From: Lophium mytilinum
Lineage: Eukaryota; Ascomycota; Dothideomycetes; Mytilinidiales; Mytilinidiaceae
Assembly (NCBI GenBank): GCA_010093605.1
Contig: MU004185.1
Coordinates: 1,695,334-1,759,333 of the forward strand
Direction of reading: 5' to 3'
DNA: 64,000 bases
The notes under the pieces were generated by a model. That model made no database searches. It was not told the DNA's origin and saw nothing but the letters and a program-made list of their open reading frames with translations. The translations under genes were made by a program, and so were the position numbers. Positions 1,675-31,242 of this stretch are shown piece after piece. How positions within the stretch are numbered: the first letter of the stretch is position 1; each line of letters begins with the position of its first letter.

Positions 1675-2487
1675 AACCCTCCTCCGAACTCGGCTATCCA
1701 CAAACCCGATTCACCCAATTTTCACAGCTTCAGCGCTTATACTACCCGCGTTGCGGCACGAACCCAATACCTGAACTGGACTGCGCCTTCTGTACATTCA
1801 CACCACTTTGCTTAGCTGCTTGCGAGACGATACGAGAGTAGGAAGGATGGATACGAGGGCTCCTGATGTTCGATACCCCACTGGATAGAGCATCATGGAA
1901 TCGATAACGAGCATATAAACGGCTGGGCCCTGTCTGGCGGAGTCTCTTTTACTCTTGCTCTGTGTTTGATTAGGCGACGTAGGCAGTCGGGTTTACTTTC
2001 TTATCCGTGGACAACGGAATTTGGATTCTCGAAGATGAAATATAATGAAGAGTTGCTTTGCTTCCAACAAAACTGTCTAACCCAATCCTCGTTCATGCGG
2101 AGCGCTGTGGGAGAACATCGCCACATTTAGATACGTCCTCTAATGCTAGCAGATTGTGGACTGCTTCGACATTCGAGTGGCTGCTGCGATGAACAAAAAG
2201 AGATTCGCGGGCTCCAGCGCAATATCAGTCTCCTGAAAATTGACTTTCGGACTTTCGACATGCACAGAATCGGTGGCCATGTACTTTGAAGCTCCAACTA
2301 CGAATACCACCGTGAAGGACGAGGTACAGGAGTACATGTTGACAGAGGTAGCGAAGGGCTCAATCATGGCTTGTTTTGTTATTTTTCGGAGTACAGGCTC
2401 GAGGCCGTGCGTCATCCTTCGGAGTGGGGATTCGGGGCTAGCACACATTCTATGTCAACTACACCGTTCCTTGTCTCATGTCCAAGG
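1675..2487. other. Intergenic between CYSTM-like gene and Zn2Cys6 factor
   Basis: About 0.8 kb holding the 3' region of the CYSTM-like gene and the promoter of the next gene. No RNA gene or repeat seen. An upstream in-frame ATG at 2452 would lengthen the transcription factor by 12 residues. Confidence 0.6.
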
Positions 2488-4614
2488 ATGCCACCGAAAC
2501 TCCCAGCTTGTGATCCGTGTAGATCTAGGAAGGTTGCTTGTGATCATTTGCACCCGCACTGTTCACGATGCAGAGACGCAAACCTGACAGCTGTTTGCAC
2601 ATACCGGTCACGACCGTTCAAAAAGAGGCAGATCCGCAGTATATCCAACAAGGTCCGCGAGCCATCACAACAACGGAATCTTGATGATCCGAGCACGCCT
2701 GCATCTCCCGGTGTACTCCTGAAGAGACCTCGTCAATATCCCAATCCAGGCTATCTCGGCTCGTCCAGCCATACCACTCTTTTCGACCACCTCTCATCTG
2801 GCAACAGCCCAAGCAGCGATGTTGATGACCATGACCAGGACAGAGAGAAAACTCGACACAAGTTTCGTCCGAGCCTGGTCAACGACGAGAAGATTGCTCA
2901 AGGTGCAGCGCTGATCAGACAAGTTCGTCTTTCCGCCAAAGCCTCGTCGTGGGTTTTGCTGGTCGAAGCTTGGACTGCCAAGGGAGTGAACCTCCCCCTT
3001 ACGGACTCATTTACGATGCAATGCGCTGAAACTGCTCAGCACATAGTCAAAAACCTAGGTTCTAGGGATGAGGATATCGTAACTTTGTCGAAAAAGCTAT
3101 TCCTTCACTCCTGTAGCTCGCTGACAACGGGTACTGATTCCACATTGAAAGATTTTTGTGGTACCTTTTGCGAGAGCAATGCGCGATGGGAGACTATGGG
3201 ACTGTTTTTCACTGCCGTCTCTCGAGCCACCATTGACCTACCATGCTTCGGTTTCCTCTACAATACTGATCTGGAGCGGCGCTACCTGCAAAGACTAGCT
3301 ATGCAATATTCGGATTCTTGCCTAAATCTGGCCCTCTCCCTCGACTGCTTGAACGATCTGCAACTGATTCTCCAGTATGAGAATTTTATCCTCCATTCCC
3401 TGGTAGATGGTGACCAAAGTAAGCGATTTTTGCTATTTAAACGGGCCCTACTAAGTGATTAGGCTACCATTCCTGGAGGAAGCTGGGAGACGTTGCTAGC
3501 TCATTGTTTGCTCTCGGATACCACGAGCAACTTGGCCACGAGTCCGCCGTGCCGACCTTCCTCGTAGAGTTGCGACAAGCAGCCTTCAACCGCGCTTATT
3601 CTGCAGACAAGAACGTCTCGATATTCTTGGGGCGACCGCCACGGATCCATAAAAAGTACTGTCCCATCGCATATCGAGTTCTCCAGTGGACACCGGAAGA
3701 GAACTTCACGTACAAGGTAGACACCCAATGGTCTGCTGTGTGTGCATTCCTTAAAGAAGACATCCTCGACCTTCGGAAAGAAGACAGCGACACCAAACTC
3801 CAGAAAGCTGGGTGGGTAAATTCTCGCCTTACTCCAAACCTTGCTGACAGAGCAAGGCTAATACAGGCTGATGCGGAAGCACAATGGGCGGCGTTACCTA
3901 CGCACTTCCATCTCGAAGAATCCATGATATCATACGATCGACGAGCCGTAGAATTAGATTTCATGGTTAGTGCGCGACTGAACTATCTGCACGTAATGTT
4001 CCTTTTGCGCTTGACCCTGGGACTTCGGATCTCAGAACCAGACGCCGAATTGCTTGTGGTCTCTGCGGAAATGCTGAGTCTTGTCGCTCAAGCAGTTGTG
4101 CTCAAACACCGTTTAGTGAACTCTGGAACATCATTGATTTGGAAGGCAAGTTTAGCCCTAAACTTCTATAGCCGATACTTATACAAAGTAGGTGGCTTAT
4201 TATGGACTGGCTGCAGCGGGAGTCATTTCTCTTGCTTTGCTCAAGGATGCTTTCGGAAGCGCCGACGCGGAGGTTTCTGTCTCCAAAGCTATCCGTGATT
4301 TGAGTGTCCTGGTCGCGGAGGTAGAGACAGGCGCCTTGGTTCAACCCCAAGATCCTAATTACGCATTACTATCGAGTGCTACGCAGACGATAAAAAGCCT
4401 TCTTGACCGGCTTATAACCAACAAATTCGCCAAGCAGGCAGTCACTCAGCCTACTTCTTATTCCCTCCCACAACCGTCGACCGCGTATCTAGATGAAGAT
4501 TGGAGCTATGAGACACAGGACTTTGACCCGGACTTTTGGCTTAATCTGGCCGAACACCCATTTTTAGTCGCCCCTGACGCCGCAATGCAAGGATCCTCAT
4601 GGACCGCTGAATAA
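2488..4614 (+). CDS. Zn2Cys6 fungal-type transcription factor (3 exons, 678 aa)
   Basis: Exons 2488-3418, 3463-4145 and 4192-4614. The Zn2Cys6 cluster is at the very N-terminus (ACDPCRSRKVACDHLHPHC, then SRC and a sixth Cys in TAVC), followed by a basic linker, FKKRQIRS. After an unstructured stretch, residues about 160-560 form the fungal transcription-factor middle region, with YHSWRKLGDVASSLFALG and IFLGRPPRIHKKYCP, as expected for PF04082-like domains. Intron 2 (4146-4191) has a GC donor (G|GCAAGT) and an AG acceptor; it restores WK|VAYYGLAAAGV, which is what this family shows there. The gene is convergent with the aromatic aminotransferase, and their coding ends overlap by 109 bp. Its position next to two Ehrlich-pathway enzymes suggests a local regulator, in the manner of yeast Aro80, but the DNA target is not shown. 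The start at 2488 was chosen because the zinc cluster follows at once; 2452 is an alternative. Confidence 0.92.
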
Positions 4615-26255: not shown

Positions 26256-27263
26256 ATGGAGGTAGCTCTACGACCCGCGCCTAGTAGCGCAATCGCCCAT
26301 GGTACCGCGGTGGAAGTTCCTAGGCCATCTGACGCGGGCAGCGAGCTCCAATACTCTCTAGAAGACCTCACCGAAACCGACCGACGGCGCTTCAACACCA
26401 CCCAAGTCCTGGGCCATGGCGCGTACGCCTGGGTCGAAGAGGTCCAAGACCTGGTCAAAGGGGACACAGTAGCCATGAAAGTAATACCAGCCCTAAAACG
26501 GAAGCGCGAACAAACCAGGAAACGCGTCCAAGAAGAGGTAGAAATACTCCGGAAGATATCAGGGCATTGTCATATCGTACGGCTGCGACACGCGTTTGCT
26601 GAGAAACGAGGATTCTGCATTCTAGTTGAGCCAGTTGCGGAATGCGATTTGGCGGCTTTTTACGAGCATTGCGCTGCGGAAAAGTTCCCCGGGAAGATGA
26701 TACGGGAGATTAGGATGTGGTTCTCGTGTTTGGCGCATGGGTTGGAGTATATACATTCGCATCGGATACGGCATAAGGGTGTGTTCAAGCACTCGCTTTG
26801 TTGGATATATGCTGATTGAAGCCCAGATATCAAACCTCAGAACATTTTAGTGAAGGATGGGAACGTACTCTTCGCTGACTTCGGTCTTGCGAAAGATTTT
26901 GCGTCCTCCGACGGCCTGAGCAGTACGACGGAAGGCTACACACAGAAGACGCCAATGTACGCAGCTCCTGAAGTCCACCAGCAAGGTGAAAGGAGGTACT
27001 CTGCGGATATCTTCTCCCTAGGATGCGTGTTCGCAGAGCTTGCGTGTCTCCTAAACGGTGGGCCTGTGTCCGCCTTCTATGACTTCCGGATTAAATCGAA
27101 ATCATATGGCTCCGAAACTCATGCGTTTCACGAGACGCTTGATCTTGTTGATCTCTGGCTAGAGAAAAGTACACTCCGGATCTATCATGTTATCATGGAC
27201 ATGCTTGAAGAAGAGGCGAGCCAGAGACCAACTGCACTTGAACTTCAAGTGCTTATTTCATAA
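26256..27263 (+). CDS. Ser/Thr protein kinase (2 exons, 319 aa as modelled)
   Basis: Exons 26256-26778 and 26827-27263; the 48-nt intron joins HK and DIKPQN. All kinase hallmarks are present: glycine loop VLGHGAYAWVEEV, VAMKVI lysine, EEVEILRKI glutamate, catalytic loop RIRHKDIKPQNILV, DFGLAKD, YAAPEV, and DIFSLGCVFAEL with RPTALELQ at the end. The catalytic loop reads HKD rather than HRD, which is tolerated in active kinases. Residues 1-45 before the domain are disordered. An alternative first exon at 26079-26152 spliced to 26285 keeps phase. Directly behind the TAA at 27261, the same frame reopens into a Ras-like GTPase, so this may be one fused gene. The target is unknown. It sits upstream of a HET-domain gene. 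Confidence 0.85.
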
Positions 27264-27275
27264 AACTTCCCGGAG

Positions 27276-28166
27276 ATGCTCCCGTGCAGTCATGTTCCGA
27301 CAAATTCAGAGGGCGCGACAACGAGACCTATTCGCCCGGGACATTATCAAGTGGATCCTAAACGCCGGAGTATCGTCCCATCGCTTGTAGCTGAACCAGA
27401 AATTGCCAGTTGCGCCGTGGCCATAGGGGAGCAGTGTCAGGCAACCCAACCCACCTCTATCGTGGACAGCAGTAAGGCCTTCAAGGTAGAGTCCACCAGC
27501 TCCAACCGAAAAGAAATCTTCGAGCAGCATCTTCGAAAGATAAAGCCACCCCAGATCGCGGAACCATTCTCAAAACCAGCTATTCATGTCAAAAAGAAAG
27601 CGCTTTTGACTCCGCCCAAAATGACCACCTCAAAAGTCATCGTTCTGCTAGGCGCCGCTGGTGCAGGCAAATCTGCACTCGTGCGATCTTTCACTAGTGG
27701 CCGCTTTTACCATGACTACGATCCTACAATCCAGGACACTGCCTGCAAACCCGTCACCACCCGTTCCCTAACTACGCTCCTCCGCATCGTCGACACGGCC
27801 GGCCAGGACGAGTATGCTGAATTACGCGAAACCAGCGCGCTCGATGCGGACGGTTTCGTCATCGTTTACAGCATCGAGGATCGCGGGTCCTTCGATCGTG
27901 TACTTGGTTTTATCGAAGATGTCCAGCGGGTTTGGGCGTGGGCGCAGCAGCAGGGGCGGAAAGAGGAAGGGCAGCATCCACGGTTCCTGACAATCGTGGG
28001 GGCTAAGGCTGATTTAAAGGGAGAGCGATGTGTGCGGGTTGAAGAAGGGGAGAAGCTCGCGAAGAGTGTTGGGTGTCAGTTCTTAGAGACTAGTGCGAAG
28101 GAGAATTGGAATGTTGACGTTCTCTTTCGCGATGCTGTTGAGAGACTGGTGGAAGGAAATGGGTGA
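27276..28166 (+). CDS. Ras-superfamily small GTPase with long N-terminal extension (or C-terminal half of a kinase-GTPase fusion)
   Basis: Open from 27276 with 296 codons. A classic Ras start, MTTSKVIVLLGAAGAGKSAL, lies at 27621, preceded in frame by 115 open codons. GTPase motifs are G1 GAAGAGKS, switch I YDPTIQDT, G3 DTAGQDEY, and G5 ETSAKENW. G4 reads VGAKADL, so the Asn of NKxD is Ala; this is unusual because it reads the guanine base. The C-terminus as modelled ends RLVEGNG with no CaaX box. A GTGAGT donor overlaps the stop, so a further exon carrying a lipidation signal is possible but I could not place it. The kinase frame and this frame are identical. Minimal Ras gene 27621-28166, extended Ras gene and fusion are all open models. 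Confidence 0.78.
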   Translation: MLPCSHVPTNSEGATTRPIRPGHYQVDPKRRSIVPSLVAEPEIASCAVAIGEQCQATQPTSIVDSSKAFKVESTSSNRKEIFEQHLRKIKPPQIAEPFSKPAIHVKKKALLTPPKMTTSKVIVLLGAAGAGKSALVRSFTSGRFYHDYDPTIQDTACKPVTTRSLTTLLRIVDTAGQDEYAELRETSALDADGFVIVYSIEDRGSFDRVLGFIEDVQRVWAWAQQQGRKEEGQHPRFLTIVGAKADLKGERCVRVEEGEKLAKSVGCQFLETSAKENWNVDVLFRDAVERLVEGNG

Positions 28167-29211
28167 GTGATGAGTACGCGCTCGCGTCGAGGTTATCGAA
28201 CTGCATCGCCCCAACTGTACCCTTTCCCGCCTTAGCTCGACATGTTTCGATGCCTTGGGAATGCTGGTAACGTCTGCAAAGGCCTGTAAGTTGAATGGTG
28301 TTGTTCCCCTTCGGTGCCCTCACTGACTGACAAACAAGCCTTGCGATAAGAGTCCGTTGCTAGTTGAAGAACGGCTAGCTTCAAGCTCTCGTTCTCGACC
28401 TCGCATTGAGTGTTCAGCATTGGACCCTTTCGAGGTATCCTTGAGGGCCATTCAGTCAACCGCTAGAGGCTTACCGACGCCTGCTAGGCAATGTGCGGGA
28501 ATAACGTATCGTTATTAACTTATTATGGGTGGAAAACTTGCGACGATGTCTCAAGGGCTAGCTCTGCTTTGAGACGGGCACATCAAGCTCAGCCTCTCTG
28601 GACGTCTGTAGCGCTGGGCTTCTTTCCAATTCGTCTGTGACTGGTGCGAGCAAACGCTGGGTATGGGCTGGCACACTCAGATTGGTCTACCCTGCAGCGG
28701 GCGAGCTGCAACACGAACATGCAGGCTTCGCAGCTGAGGCACCCTTCCGCAACGAAATCAATGTGTATCGGGCTAGTGGATTGAAAGCACCCAGCCTCGG
28801 AAGGTACTCGCCAAGTGCGCCAAAAGACTTCCATGTGTTTAGAATGCCTGGTTGTAGTCCTTGGAAGGTCCGGTTAGAGACCTACTGCTATACAATCTCG
28901 ATCTCTCGAACGGACATATACGTCCAGGCTGCAGCAAGGCTCTGCCGATTTGGATATGCCTCATGCAGGTTGGGGGGCTGTGTAGGCGGGGCTCGGGCCA
29001 TCAGCTTTACATACGGTCTCTTTCAAACTCCTTCATCATCGCCACTCCAATCTAATGACTTTGACGACATATTTGTGGATTAACAACACACAAAATCAGG
29101 ACTCAACTGATACTCGTCGCGTGCTCCGTACGCCCAGATACATTTCTTCGACGCGCGAGCTGGCGACGGCACTTCCGGTCGGTCGGATCAAGACCTTGGC
29201 CCAACTGGAAC
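28167..29211. other. 1-kb intergenic region, Ras-like gene to HET gene
   Basis: May hold a last exon of the Ras-like gene (a GTGAGT donor lies at 28163). Overlapping short frames around 28600-29080 look like no known family. No RNA gene seen. Confidence 0.5.
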
Positions 29212-31242
29212 ATGACTTCTACCAAATCCGCGAACGGGTCCTTACCCCTCTCATCCTCTGTTCAGGCCTTGAAGTGCCCGGTATGCGGCAATTTGGAGCC
29301 CAACACTCGACGTCCCTCGGGGCGCTATAAAACTCGCCTTGACCTTCTTCAAAAATCAAGGCAGGAAGGCTGTGAATTTTGCGCCTTGCTTGTGGATGGC
29401 ATACTTGCCCAAGAGTATGTTTTGGATGCCACGGATACCCTACTCATTACCATATATTATGACTTAAACATAAATTTGGAAGTTCGTAAAGTTTCTCTAA
29501 ACAAGGCGAAAGATGGCTCTAGCGGTACTTGGATCGCCAATTTAGAGTTTTTTACATATGAAGGTGAGTTCTCGTTCTCTTGTGCCTTCATATTCCTATT
29601 TCACCACTAAAAAATTGAAGGCTCAGAGGTGGCGCTGCCCCGTGTTCCAAATCGCCCACGCTTCAATGATTGTCCAAGCTCAGAAGAGAGCATTTTCAAA
29701 GTGAAGCAGTGGATTACTATGTGTGAATCTGCTTGGCACCATAGATGCAATGAATGGACTGTGGCATCAATGGCGGCTATCGACAAGCCGAAACGACTGA
29801 TATGTGTAGGCTCTCAAGACCATGCTCCGTTCTTATACGAGCCTTCTTTGGAATACCCAAATACGAAGTATATTGCCCTTAGTCATTGCTGGGGCAAAGT
29901 ACAGCCTATGCGCACACTCCAGGGAAATATCAAAGACATGAGGAAATCCATACCATGGATGGAGATGCCCAAGACTTTTCAAGATACCATCACAATAGCA
30001 CGGAAGCTGGGAATAGAATACGCGTGGATTGACTCGTTATGCATTGTGCAAGATGACCTTGATGACTGGGCGAAAGAATCTTCTAAGATGGGCGACATCT
30101 ACTCCGGAGCTTATCTCACTATCGCGGCCGCGGCGGCTCATGACAGTTCCGCGGGATTCTTAGGAGCACGTCAGAATCTTACAAAAGTGGTCTCTTTACG
30201 ACTGAAAGGGAGTTTAAAGGCTCACGATATTCATGTACGGCCAAGGCTTGATTCCCTGGGGAAGGGGCCATTGCAAGATCGTGGCTGGGCCTTCCAAGAG
30301 CGTATTTTGTCCCCAAGAATTCTCAGATTTCTGGAGCACGAGATGGAATGGGAATGTCACAGTGCAAGATGCTGTGAGTGTGAAAGCAGGATCTTATTCC
30401 TCAGCGAGCGGCTACCTATGCACTACACCTCGAACACAGACAGCACATATTTCTGGGGGCGTGATTTTGTTGCTGATTTCTCACGTCTGAAACTGACGCA
30501 AGAGATGGACACACTCCCAGCCCTATCGGGCATTGCTGCCTCTTATAGAGAAGTGACTGCGGAGGACTACTTGGCAGGACTATGGAAAACACACCTTGCA
30601 CCTGGACTTCTTTGGCGTTCCAAAACACCCGGTACACTACCTACAAGCTGGCGAGCGCCCTCGTGGTCGTGGGCTTCTGTAACTGGACCAGTTGACTATC
30701 GCTTCGCAGTTGGCCCAAACGTACACTCGTGTCACGTTGAAATCCTCCACGCACAATCCACGAAGGCAACAGCAGATCCATTCGGTCGCGTGTGTAGTGG
30801 GTTCATCGACATGAGAGGCCCGATCCTTCCGGCATTACTGAGCCGTGACAACTCGCAGCATCAAGTGATCCTCAGAGACTCACCAATGCCGCTTCGACCT
30901 CACTCCTCTAATGTCTATTTAGATACATGTATGGATGCGATGATCATTCCAACCTCGTCTGGGCCTCACAGGTCCCCCGTCAGGAGCCGCAACAAGCTTA
31001 AAGATCTAACCGAGGAGAGCCTTGTCGGAGAAATCTGGCTCATGGTCTTGTCTTCTGAATCAGGGCATCTATCTTTGTTTGGTTCAGGATCTCGAATAGT
31101 CTGTCTCATTCTTGGACTCTCGCCAAACGTGCAAGACTGTTATGAGCGGCTTGGTTTGTATGTCTATCGTTCCACAGCCCCATATTCCACAGCGCAAGAC
31201 TATATTGCCTCCATAGAGGCAAAAGAAGTCAGGGTCGTCTAA
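29212..31242 (+). CDS. HET-domain protein (heterokaryon incompatibility; 2 exons, 657 aa)
   Basis: Exons 29212-29563 and 29621-31242. The N-terminal region has two cysteine pairs (LKCPVCGNLEPN and GCEFCALLVDGIL), usual before the HET domain. The HET domain starts near residue 205 with the full run of motifs: KYIALSHCWGKVQPM, TFQDTITIARKLGIEYAWIDSLCIVQDD, then DWAKESSKMGDIYSGAYLTIAAAAA and, further on, GPLQDRGWAFQERILSPRIL. HET proteins trigger cell death on non-self fusion or act in fungal innate responses. Here no NACHT or repeat domain follows; the C-terminal 300 residues carry the common WRAPSWSWASVTG motif. Neighbouring kinase and Ras-like genes may or may not be functionally linked. Confidence 0.93.

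What the first reader, a model, noticed from the sequence alone, without database searches (positions are those of the whole stretch)
26256..28166. Ser/Thr kinase and Ras-like GTPase in one reading frame: possible fused signalling protein
The kinase frame ends in TAA at 27261; the same frame reopens 12 nt later and stays open for 115 codons before the canonical Ras start (MTTSKVIVLLGAAGAGKS at 27621). A random stretch would rarely stay open that long in just this frame. A candidate intron 27249-27311 (63 nt, GT..AG) would remove the stop and keep phase, joining ALELQ to GATTRPIRPG. A kinase fused in front of a Ras GTPase is not a standard fungal architecture, so either a new fusion or a tight gene pair with an odd N-terminal extension is present.
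Basis: partly seen in the sequence, partly recalled or inferred. Interest (0 to 1): 0.72.

Follow-up and report, generated by a model that had tools for sequence, protein, structure and literature searches.

The report
Split kinase–Ras reading frame in fungus
In this fungal genome a protein kinase and a Ras-type switch protein sit in one reading frame interrupted by a single stop codon, and an uninterrupted Ras–kinase frame elsewhere in the same genome shows that such combined proteins are encoded here, although whether the pair in this window is made as one protein is unproven.

Summary
A kinase (exons 26256-26778 and 26827-27260) ends in TAA at 27261; the same frame is then open through a 119-codon linker into a Ras-family GTPase (27621-28163). 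The linker has coding-like codon use (1 of 219 non-coding windows scores as high; a harsher control is weaker, 7 of 26). The proposed intron 27249-27311 is poorly supported: no donor with G at +5 and no CTRAY branch site in 27150-27420. As the DNA stands, the kinase stops at TAA. I favour one frame in origin, now split: two proteins from one message (next ATG 12 nt after the stop) or a fusion broken by one codon. Transcripts would decide. The best support for fusion lies elsewhere: contig C8 holds an uninterrupted Ras-linker-kinase frame whose Ras half is a Ras2 copy with a lost P-loop. Both kinases belong to one expanded family; 8 of 26 scanned members (of 32), C8 included, carry ankyrin, HET, RhoGEF, CDC24 or Ras parts in a kinase frame. 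The two Ras-kinase unions are probably independent and are in opposite order.

The parts
26256..26778 (+). kinase exon 1 (N-lobe to the catalytic loop; glycine loop LGHGAYAWV, lysine VAMK)
   Evidence: PF00069 E 1e-19; motif names recalled
26779..26826 (+). intron inside the kinase, 48 nt, GTGTGT..CCCAG; holds the in-frame TGA at 26817
   Evidence: removal restores HRIRHKDIKPQNIL, the motif of paralogues
26827..27263 (+). kinase exon 2 (DFG, APE, C-lobe) ending in TAA at 27261-27263 after RPTALELQVLIS
   Evidence: PF00069 E 3.2e-17 to profile position 257 of 263; family profile matched to 290 of 313, where 20 of 32 family rows reach 305 or more
   Evidence: donor GTGCTT; no +5 G donor and no CTRAY in 27150-27420; 0 of 26 reference introns start GTGCTT
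27276..27620 (+). linker: open frame from the first ATG after the kinase stop to the Ras start; coding-like codon use, strongest in 27465-27620
27621..28166 (+). Ras-subfamily GTPase domain (GAAGAGKS, DTAGQDEY, ETSAK present; NKxD reads AKAD; no CAAX box), stop TGA 28164-28166
   Evidence: PF00071 E 1.1e-40; best solved chain R-Ras2 E 3.4e-28; alignment; tree; box names recalled
28163..28168 (+). GTGAGT, a donor-like site overlapping the Ras stop; the true C-terminus may lie in a further exon
   Evidence: with this donor, none of the 27 acceptors tested down to 28697 gives a CAAX tail

Best explanation
The locus was laid down as one kinase-linker-Ras frame of an expanded fungal Ser/Thr kinase family whose members pick up partner domains, and it is now split by one in-frame TAA. 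As the DNA reads, the kinase is made as a 319-residue protein ending near its domain end; the linker-Ras part is either made as a second protein from the same message by re-initiation at the ATG 12 nt after the stop, or is the tail of a broken fusion. Inferred function: the GTPase domain would switch or place the kinase, joined or as a partner made from the same message. Shown: the domains, one open frame apart from TAA, coding-like codon use in the linker, an uninterrupted Ras-kinase frame elsewhere in the genome. Inferred: common origin as a fusion, co-transcription, regulation.
For: Same frame on both sides of the stop, with a 119-codon opening expected in about 1.8%; in-frame codon use of the linker like coding sequence; no donor with G at +5 and no CTRAY site across the junction; PF00069 matched to 257 of 263 before the stop; no CAAX box in the Ras part, unlike the genome's Ras2 (ends CVIL); among 37 merged Ras-type places and 116 merged kinase places (a lower bound: 119 of 282 candidates scored) only this pair and C8 lie within 11 kb of each other, with 0.17 same-strand pairs within 1 kb expected; 8 of 26 scanned members of the kinase family carry another domain in a kinase-bearing frame; re-initiation after a short intergenic sequence is shown in yeast with a fungal sequence (PMC10352335, passages).
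Against: The stop is there, and the Ras ATG at 27621 stands in a good context by recall (CAAAATG), so a separate Ras gene is possible. A harsher control leaves the linker's coding signal unremarkable (7 of 26 open wrong-frame windows as high), and its first part (27264-27464) scores only 0.012. No transcript data. No relative was found in viral or bacterial/archaeal contigs, but no fungal collection is held, so conservation is untested. Long-read work found no polycistronic messages in the ascomycete Neurospora crassa (PMC4503453, passages). C8's kinase is not a sister of this one, so C8 does not prove that this pair was ever joined.
Confidence: 0.5

Rival explanations
1. Two ordinary neighbouring genes: a kinase ending at 27263 and a Ras gene starting at 27621; the 119-codon opening is leader or intergenic DNA that happens to be open.
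For: In-frame stop; PF00069 nearly complete at the stop; good start context at 27621 by recall; 7 of 26 wrong-frame open windows score as high as the linker; first part of the linker only weakly coding-like.
Against: Chance of the opening about 1.8%; 1 of 219 non-coding windows has codon use as coding-like; Ras part without CAAX.
Confidence: 0.27
2. A living fusion: the message is spliced across the TAA (27249-27311 or another site) and one kinase-linker-Ras protein is made.
For: In-phase GT..AG pairs exist; Ras and kinase are joined in one frame at C8.
Against: No donor with G at +5 and no CTRAY site in 27150-27420; 0 of 26 reference introns start GTGCTT; the donor lies in an 8-bp hairpin stem; CAG at 27309 precedes the in-phase AG, and that out-of-phase version fits the kinase profile slightly better (279.8 against 276.9 bits).
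Confidence: 0.1
3. The TAA is a single-base sequencing or assembly error, or an allele of this strain only, and the species makes the full fusion.
For: After the kinase intron only one codon interrupts the frame down to 28163.
Against: No reads or other strains available to test it; no direct evidence for an error.
Confidence: 0.13

Closest known systems
DAPK1 (kinase first, ROC GTPase later in one protein)
   Same: order kinase then Ras-like GTPase; the review places DAPK1's kinase at the extreme N-terminus (PMC4104024, passages)
   Different: here a Ras-subfamily domain (PF00071 139 bits against PF08477 43 bits), no COR match, and a stop between the parts
LRRK1/LRRK2 and other Roco kinases
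   Same: C8 has the order GTPase then kinase in one frame
   Different: no COR match, Ras2-derived GTPase part; [quoted passage not shown]
Fungal Ras2
   Same: C8's GTPase part is sister to the C9 gene that I call Ras2 by recall (96/99), with the same intron position; the window's Ras part lies in the wider 7-row Ras clade (96/94)
   Different: window domain has no intron at that position, lacks CAAX, G4 altered; C8 lost the P-loop
Bicistronic genes of Glarea lozoyensis (IGG1) and the derived IGG6
   Same: a short intergenic sequence joins two genes into one message in a filamentous fungus; with IGG6 the second frame is made by re-initiation (PMC10352335, passages)
   Different: here no transcript evidence; I did not see the IGG letters and could not compare them

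Membership tests
Eukaryotic Ser/Thr protein kinase (PF00069) | full kinase domain with catalytic motifs | tested here: met
   profile 2-122 and 123-257 of 263; DIKPQN, DFG, APE present after removing the intron
Expanded kinase family of this genome | falls in the supported clade of family kinases | tested here: met
   within the 32-row clade (96/97), beside L023, L071, L036, L073 (95/88)
Ras subfamily small GTPase (PF00071) | profile match and place in the Ras clade | tested here: met
   E 1.1e-40; seven-row clade (96/94) with rows that I name Ras1, Ras2, Rsr1-like and Rheb-like by recall
Ras subfamily small GTPase (PF00071) | G1, G2, G3, G5 boxes intact | tested here: met
   alignment; box names recalled
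Ras subfamily small GTPase (PF00071) | G4 NKxD | tested here: not met
   reads AKAD
Ras subfamily small GTPase (PF00071) | C-terminal CAAX box | tested here: not met
   frame ends VEGNG; with the donor at 28163 none of 27 acceptors gives CAAX
Roco / DAPK (ROC-COR with kinase) | COR domain next to ROC | tested here: not met
   no COR match at E 0.001 in the window frames or in C8
Single kinase-Ras protein | uninterrupted or well-supported spliceable frame | tested here: not met
   TAA at 27261; no donor with G at +5 in 27150-27420
Single kinase-Ras protein | transcript or protein covering both parts | not testable with these tools
   no RNA data held
Bicistronic message with re-initiation | short gap between the two frames | tested here: met
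   12 nt between TAA and the next in-frame ATG
Bicistronic message with re-initiation | one transcript over both frames | not testable with these tools
   no RNA data held

The most novel reading that the evidence does not exclude
The kinase family is a fungal set of sensors that carry captured copies of the cell's own polarity and Ras-pathway proteins (a Ras2 copy with a dead P-loop at C8, Cdc24-like parts at L070 and L072, a Ras domain at this window) beside a kinase output, in the manner of integrated decoys in plant immune receptors (concept recalled): something that attacks Ras or Cdc24 would trip the kinase. The window pair would be a member that keeps its kinase and its Ras bait as two proteins from one message.
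Probability: 0.12. Interest if true: 0.85.

Novelty: new variant of a known kind. Interest (0 to 1): 0.5.

Why it matters
[quoted passage not shown] Two separate unions of a Ras-subfamily domain with kinases of one expanded family, in opposite orders, would be a fungal convergence on the same idea. The family's other partners (RhoGEF, CDC24, HET, ankyrin) tie it to polarity and, by inference, to self/non-self responses.

Tried and rejected
Splicing across the TAA: the in-phase GT/GC..AG pairs listed all have weak donors; rejected as the main reading, not excluded. Testing stop, read-through and intron versions against the family kinase profile did not separate them (276.9 to 279.8 bits for the four that keep the domain end; 262.4 and 262.8 for the two that cut into it). 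C5 (this window) and C8 as one old fusion: the kinases fall in different supported groups; the Ras halves are apart on the tree, but holding them together is not rejected (p 0.30). Stop-codon read-through: no data; TAA followed by AAC is not the TGA CTA context that I know by recall. Structure prediction of the 27276-28163 protein alone gave mean pLDDT 38.7 and was not used. Relatives in viral contigs and genome contigs (bacteria and archaea): none. A first coding test crashed on N and was rerun with another model; one search was a first, cruder intron list, replaced. The adjoining HET gene (29629-31242) as part of the system: set aside because the genome has at least 152 HET matches.

Papers: PMC2838846 abstract, passages and the section Domain distribution; passages only of PMC4986451, PMC4104024, PMC10352335 and PMC4503453; the others only as search listings.

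Changed on checking: the count of partner domains went from 7 of 25 to 8 of 26, because L068's last kinase exon is in the frame with ankyrin repeats; wording on DAPK1, on the re-initiation paper and on the kinase end was mended.

Full report
What is there. The window lies in a 43.2 Mb assembly of 24 contigs; that it is a filamentous ascomycete is my inference from gene content (HET domains, short introns), not from a name. On the + strand, a kinase starts at 26256. The second exon ends RPTALELQVLIS and TAA at 27261-27263. The next in-frame ATG follows 12 nt later at 27276; the frame stays open to the Ras ATG at 27621 and to TGA at 28164. Pfam gives PF00069 in both exons and PF00071 in the last part. 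Best solved chains are R-Ras2, Rap2A and Rheb for the GTPase and CDK2 for the kinase.

Is it more than chance? A 119-codon opening in a named frame comes up in 1.8% of 20,000 dinucleotide shuffles of the stretch, and 50 of 7,940 sliding windows in five non-ORF parts of the window are open for that length. A codon model trained on 51 long frames and 17 non-coding stretches puts the in-frame linker 27312-27620 at 0.074; 228 coding windows average 0.076 (124 at or below the linker), 219 non-coding windows average -0.071 (1 at or above). The later half carries the signal (27465-27620 at 0.151; 27264-27464 at 0.012). Against this, an earlier Markov model gave the linker 0.03, best of its six frames, but 7 of 26 open wrong-frame windows inside genes reached that, and only 4 of 139 coding windows were as low. 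I read the linker as probably coding, at least in its second half.

Is it spliced into one protein? In 26 introns of this genome (23 placed by fit to a Ras or kinase profile with a margin of at least 5 bits over other donors, out of 29 tried, plus three placed by eye), +5 is G in 21, C in 3, A in 1 and T in 1; none begins GTGCTT. Some of the five without G may be misplaced. In 27150-27420 none of the 12 GTs has G at +5 and there is no CTRAY branch site. The donor also sits in an 8-bp hairpin stem (27234-27252; z -2.16, 6 of 200 shuffles fold as well). The family's kinase profile gains nothing from the read-through or in-phase intron versions. The kinase match ends at profile position 290 of 313; 20 of the 32 family rows reach 305 or more, but several, among them the HET- and RhoGEF-bearing L075, L077 and L070, also end at 288-289, so the end is not odd for the family.

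A second case in the same genome. A search of the assembly with the window's Ras frame and kinase exon 2 led to contig C8, where both matches lie in one 877-codon open frame. Pfam on it gives Ras at residues 31-183 and a kinase at 511-798. With a first exon joined at the intron position that the C9 Ras2 also has, it is an 874-residue protein; its first part aligns with Ras2, but the P-loop GDGGVGKT reads GENPEDCT and DTAGQE reads NSAGQG. So it is a probable non-binding copy. The first exon is my own prediction. Among 37 merged places (57 Ras matches plus one Roc match that one search shows to lie in an IF-2 gene) and 116 merged kinase places (119 of 282 candidates scored, so a lower bound), only C5 (this window, 394 nt between matches) and C8 lie within 11 kb; 0.17 same-strand pairs within 1 kb are expected.

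Are the two related? The kinase tree (39 rows, chosen largely by likeness to the window's kinase) holds a 32-row family clade (96/97). C8's kinase groups with L030, L027 and L031 (95/92), the window's with L023, L071, L036 and L073 (95/88). In the Ras tree (28 rows, exons joined roughly) C8 is sister to Ras2 (96/99) and the window's domain sits with L012 (90/93) in a 7-row Ras clade (96/94); holding C5 and C8 together costs 5.9 log units and is not rejected (p 0.30). Two separate unions, in opposite order, is the likelier reading.

The family. Of the 32 clade rows, 26 had at least one kinase-bearing frame scanned with Pfam (not so scanned: L029, L067, L033, L027, L038, L069). Seven of those frames were cut at the end of the locus (L023, L032, L035, L071, L073, L075, L077), and L028 and L068 were scanned in one of their kinase frames only. 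Eight carry another domain above its Pfam cut-off in a kinase-bearing frame: ankyrin (L037, L039, L068), RhoGEF (L070), CDC24 calponin (L072), HET (L075, L077) and Ras (C8). In L068 the kinase part of that frame is known only from my family profile (residues 1-89). L035 has ankyrin just below the cut-off; L026 has an XPC-binding match that may belong to a neighbouring gene; L023 and L073 have weak TPR and DUF3659 matches below cut-off; the window's own pair is not counted because of the stop. L072's Cdc24-like part has one other match in the genome, a C12 gene (33% identity) that also carries the only other CDC24 match, and the L070 tail matches a frame just after L072's and the same C12 gene (29% each). 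L075 and L077 sit on long branches.

How it may work. As the DNA reads, translation of the first frame ends at TAA. A ribosome resuming 12 nt later would make linker-Ras. A 9-bp sequence derived from a Glarea lozoyensis operon gives expression of a second frame in yeasts and in Aspergillus nidulans, and tests in S. cerevisiae point to re-initiation (PMC10352335, passages). I did not see that sequence and cannot compare it. In Neurospora crassa no polycistronic messages were found (PMC4503453, passages). The alternative is a fusion broken by one codon. In either case I infer that the GTPase switches or places the kinase, as discussed for LRRK2; for DAPK1 the review notes that kinase activity does not fall when nucleotide binding is disrupted (PMC4104024, passages), so placing rather than switching is also possible.

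Compared with what is known. The domain section of a survey of 30 fungal kinomes reports 72 domain types and discusses no Ras domain; the word Ras occurs once in that paper, in the reference list; its full domain list is in a figure that I could not see (PMC2838846). A table passage of the fungal NLR survey lists PKinase among the annotated domains (PMC4986451). I file the find as a new variant of GTPase-kinase combination, not as Roco or DAPK: no COR match.

Verdict. Observation confirmed; fusion in the sense of one present-day protein is unproven and the proposed intron is unlikely; one frame in origin, now split, is my best reading at 0.5.

Noticed in passing
L041:1939-4572 (-), G000 contig C8: Uninterrupted Ras-linker-kinase frame of 877 codons; Ras2-derived part with lost P-loop (first exon predicted), kinase motifs HRD, DFG, APE present.
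   Followed up: yes
L070:702-2393 (+), L072:372-2048 (-): Family kinases joined in frame to RhoGEF and to a CDC24 calponin part; the genome's only other CDC24 match is in a C12 gene (L085).
   Followed up: partly
L075:2-2701 (-), L077:157-2799 (-): Kinase followed by a HET domain in one frame.
   Followed up: partly
window 29629-31242 (+): HET-domain gene next to the pair; the genome has at least 152 HET matches, one of them just left of the window.
   Followed up: partly
window 27234-27252: Perfect 8-bp hairpin GCACTTGA/TCAAGTGC with a 3-nt loop, ending 8 nt before the kinase stop.
   Followed up: no
window 28163-28168: Donor-like GTGAGT overlapping the Ras stop; the C-terminal end of the Ras frame may be mis-set.
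   Followed up: partly
L043 near 2460-3233 (-), contig C3: Another diverged Ras-subfamily gene, sister to the window's Ras on the tree (90/93), with no listed kinase match within 15 kb.
   Followed up: no
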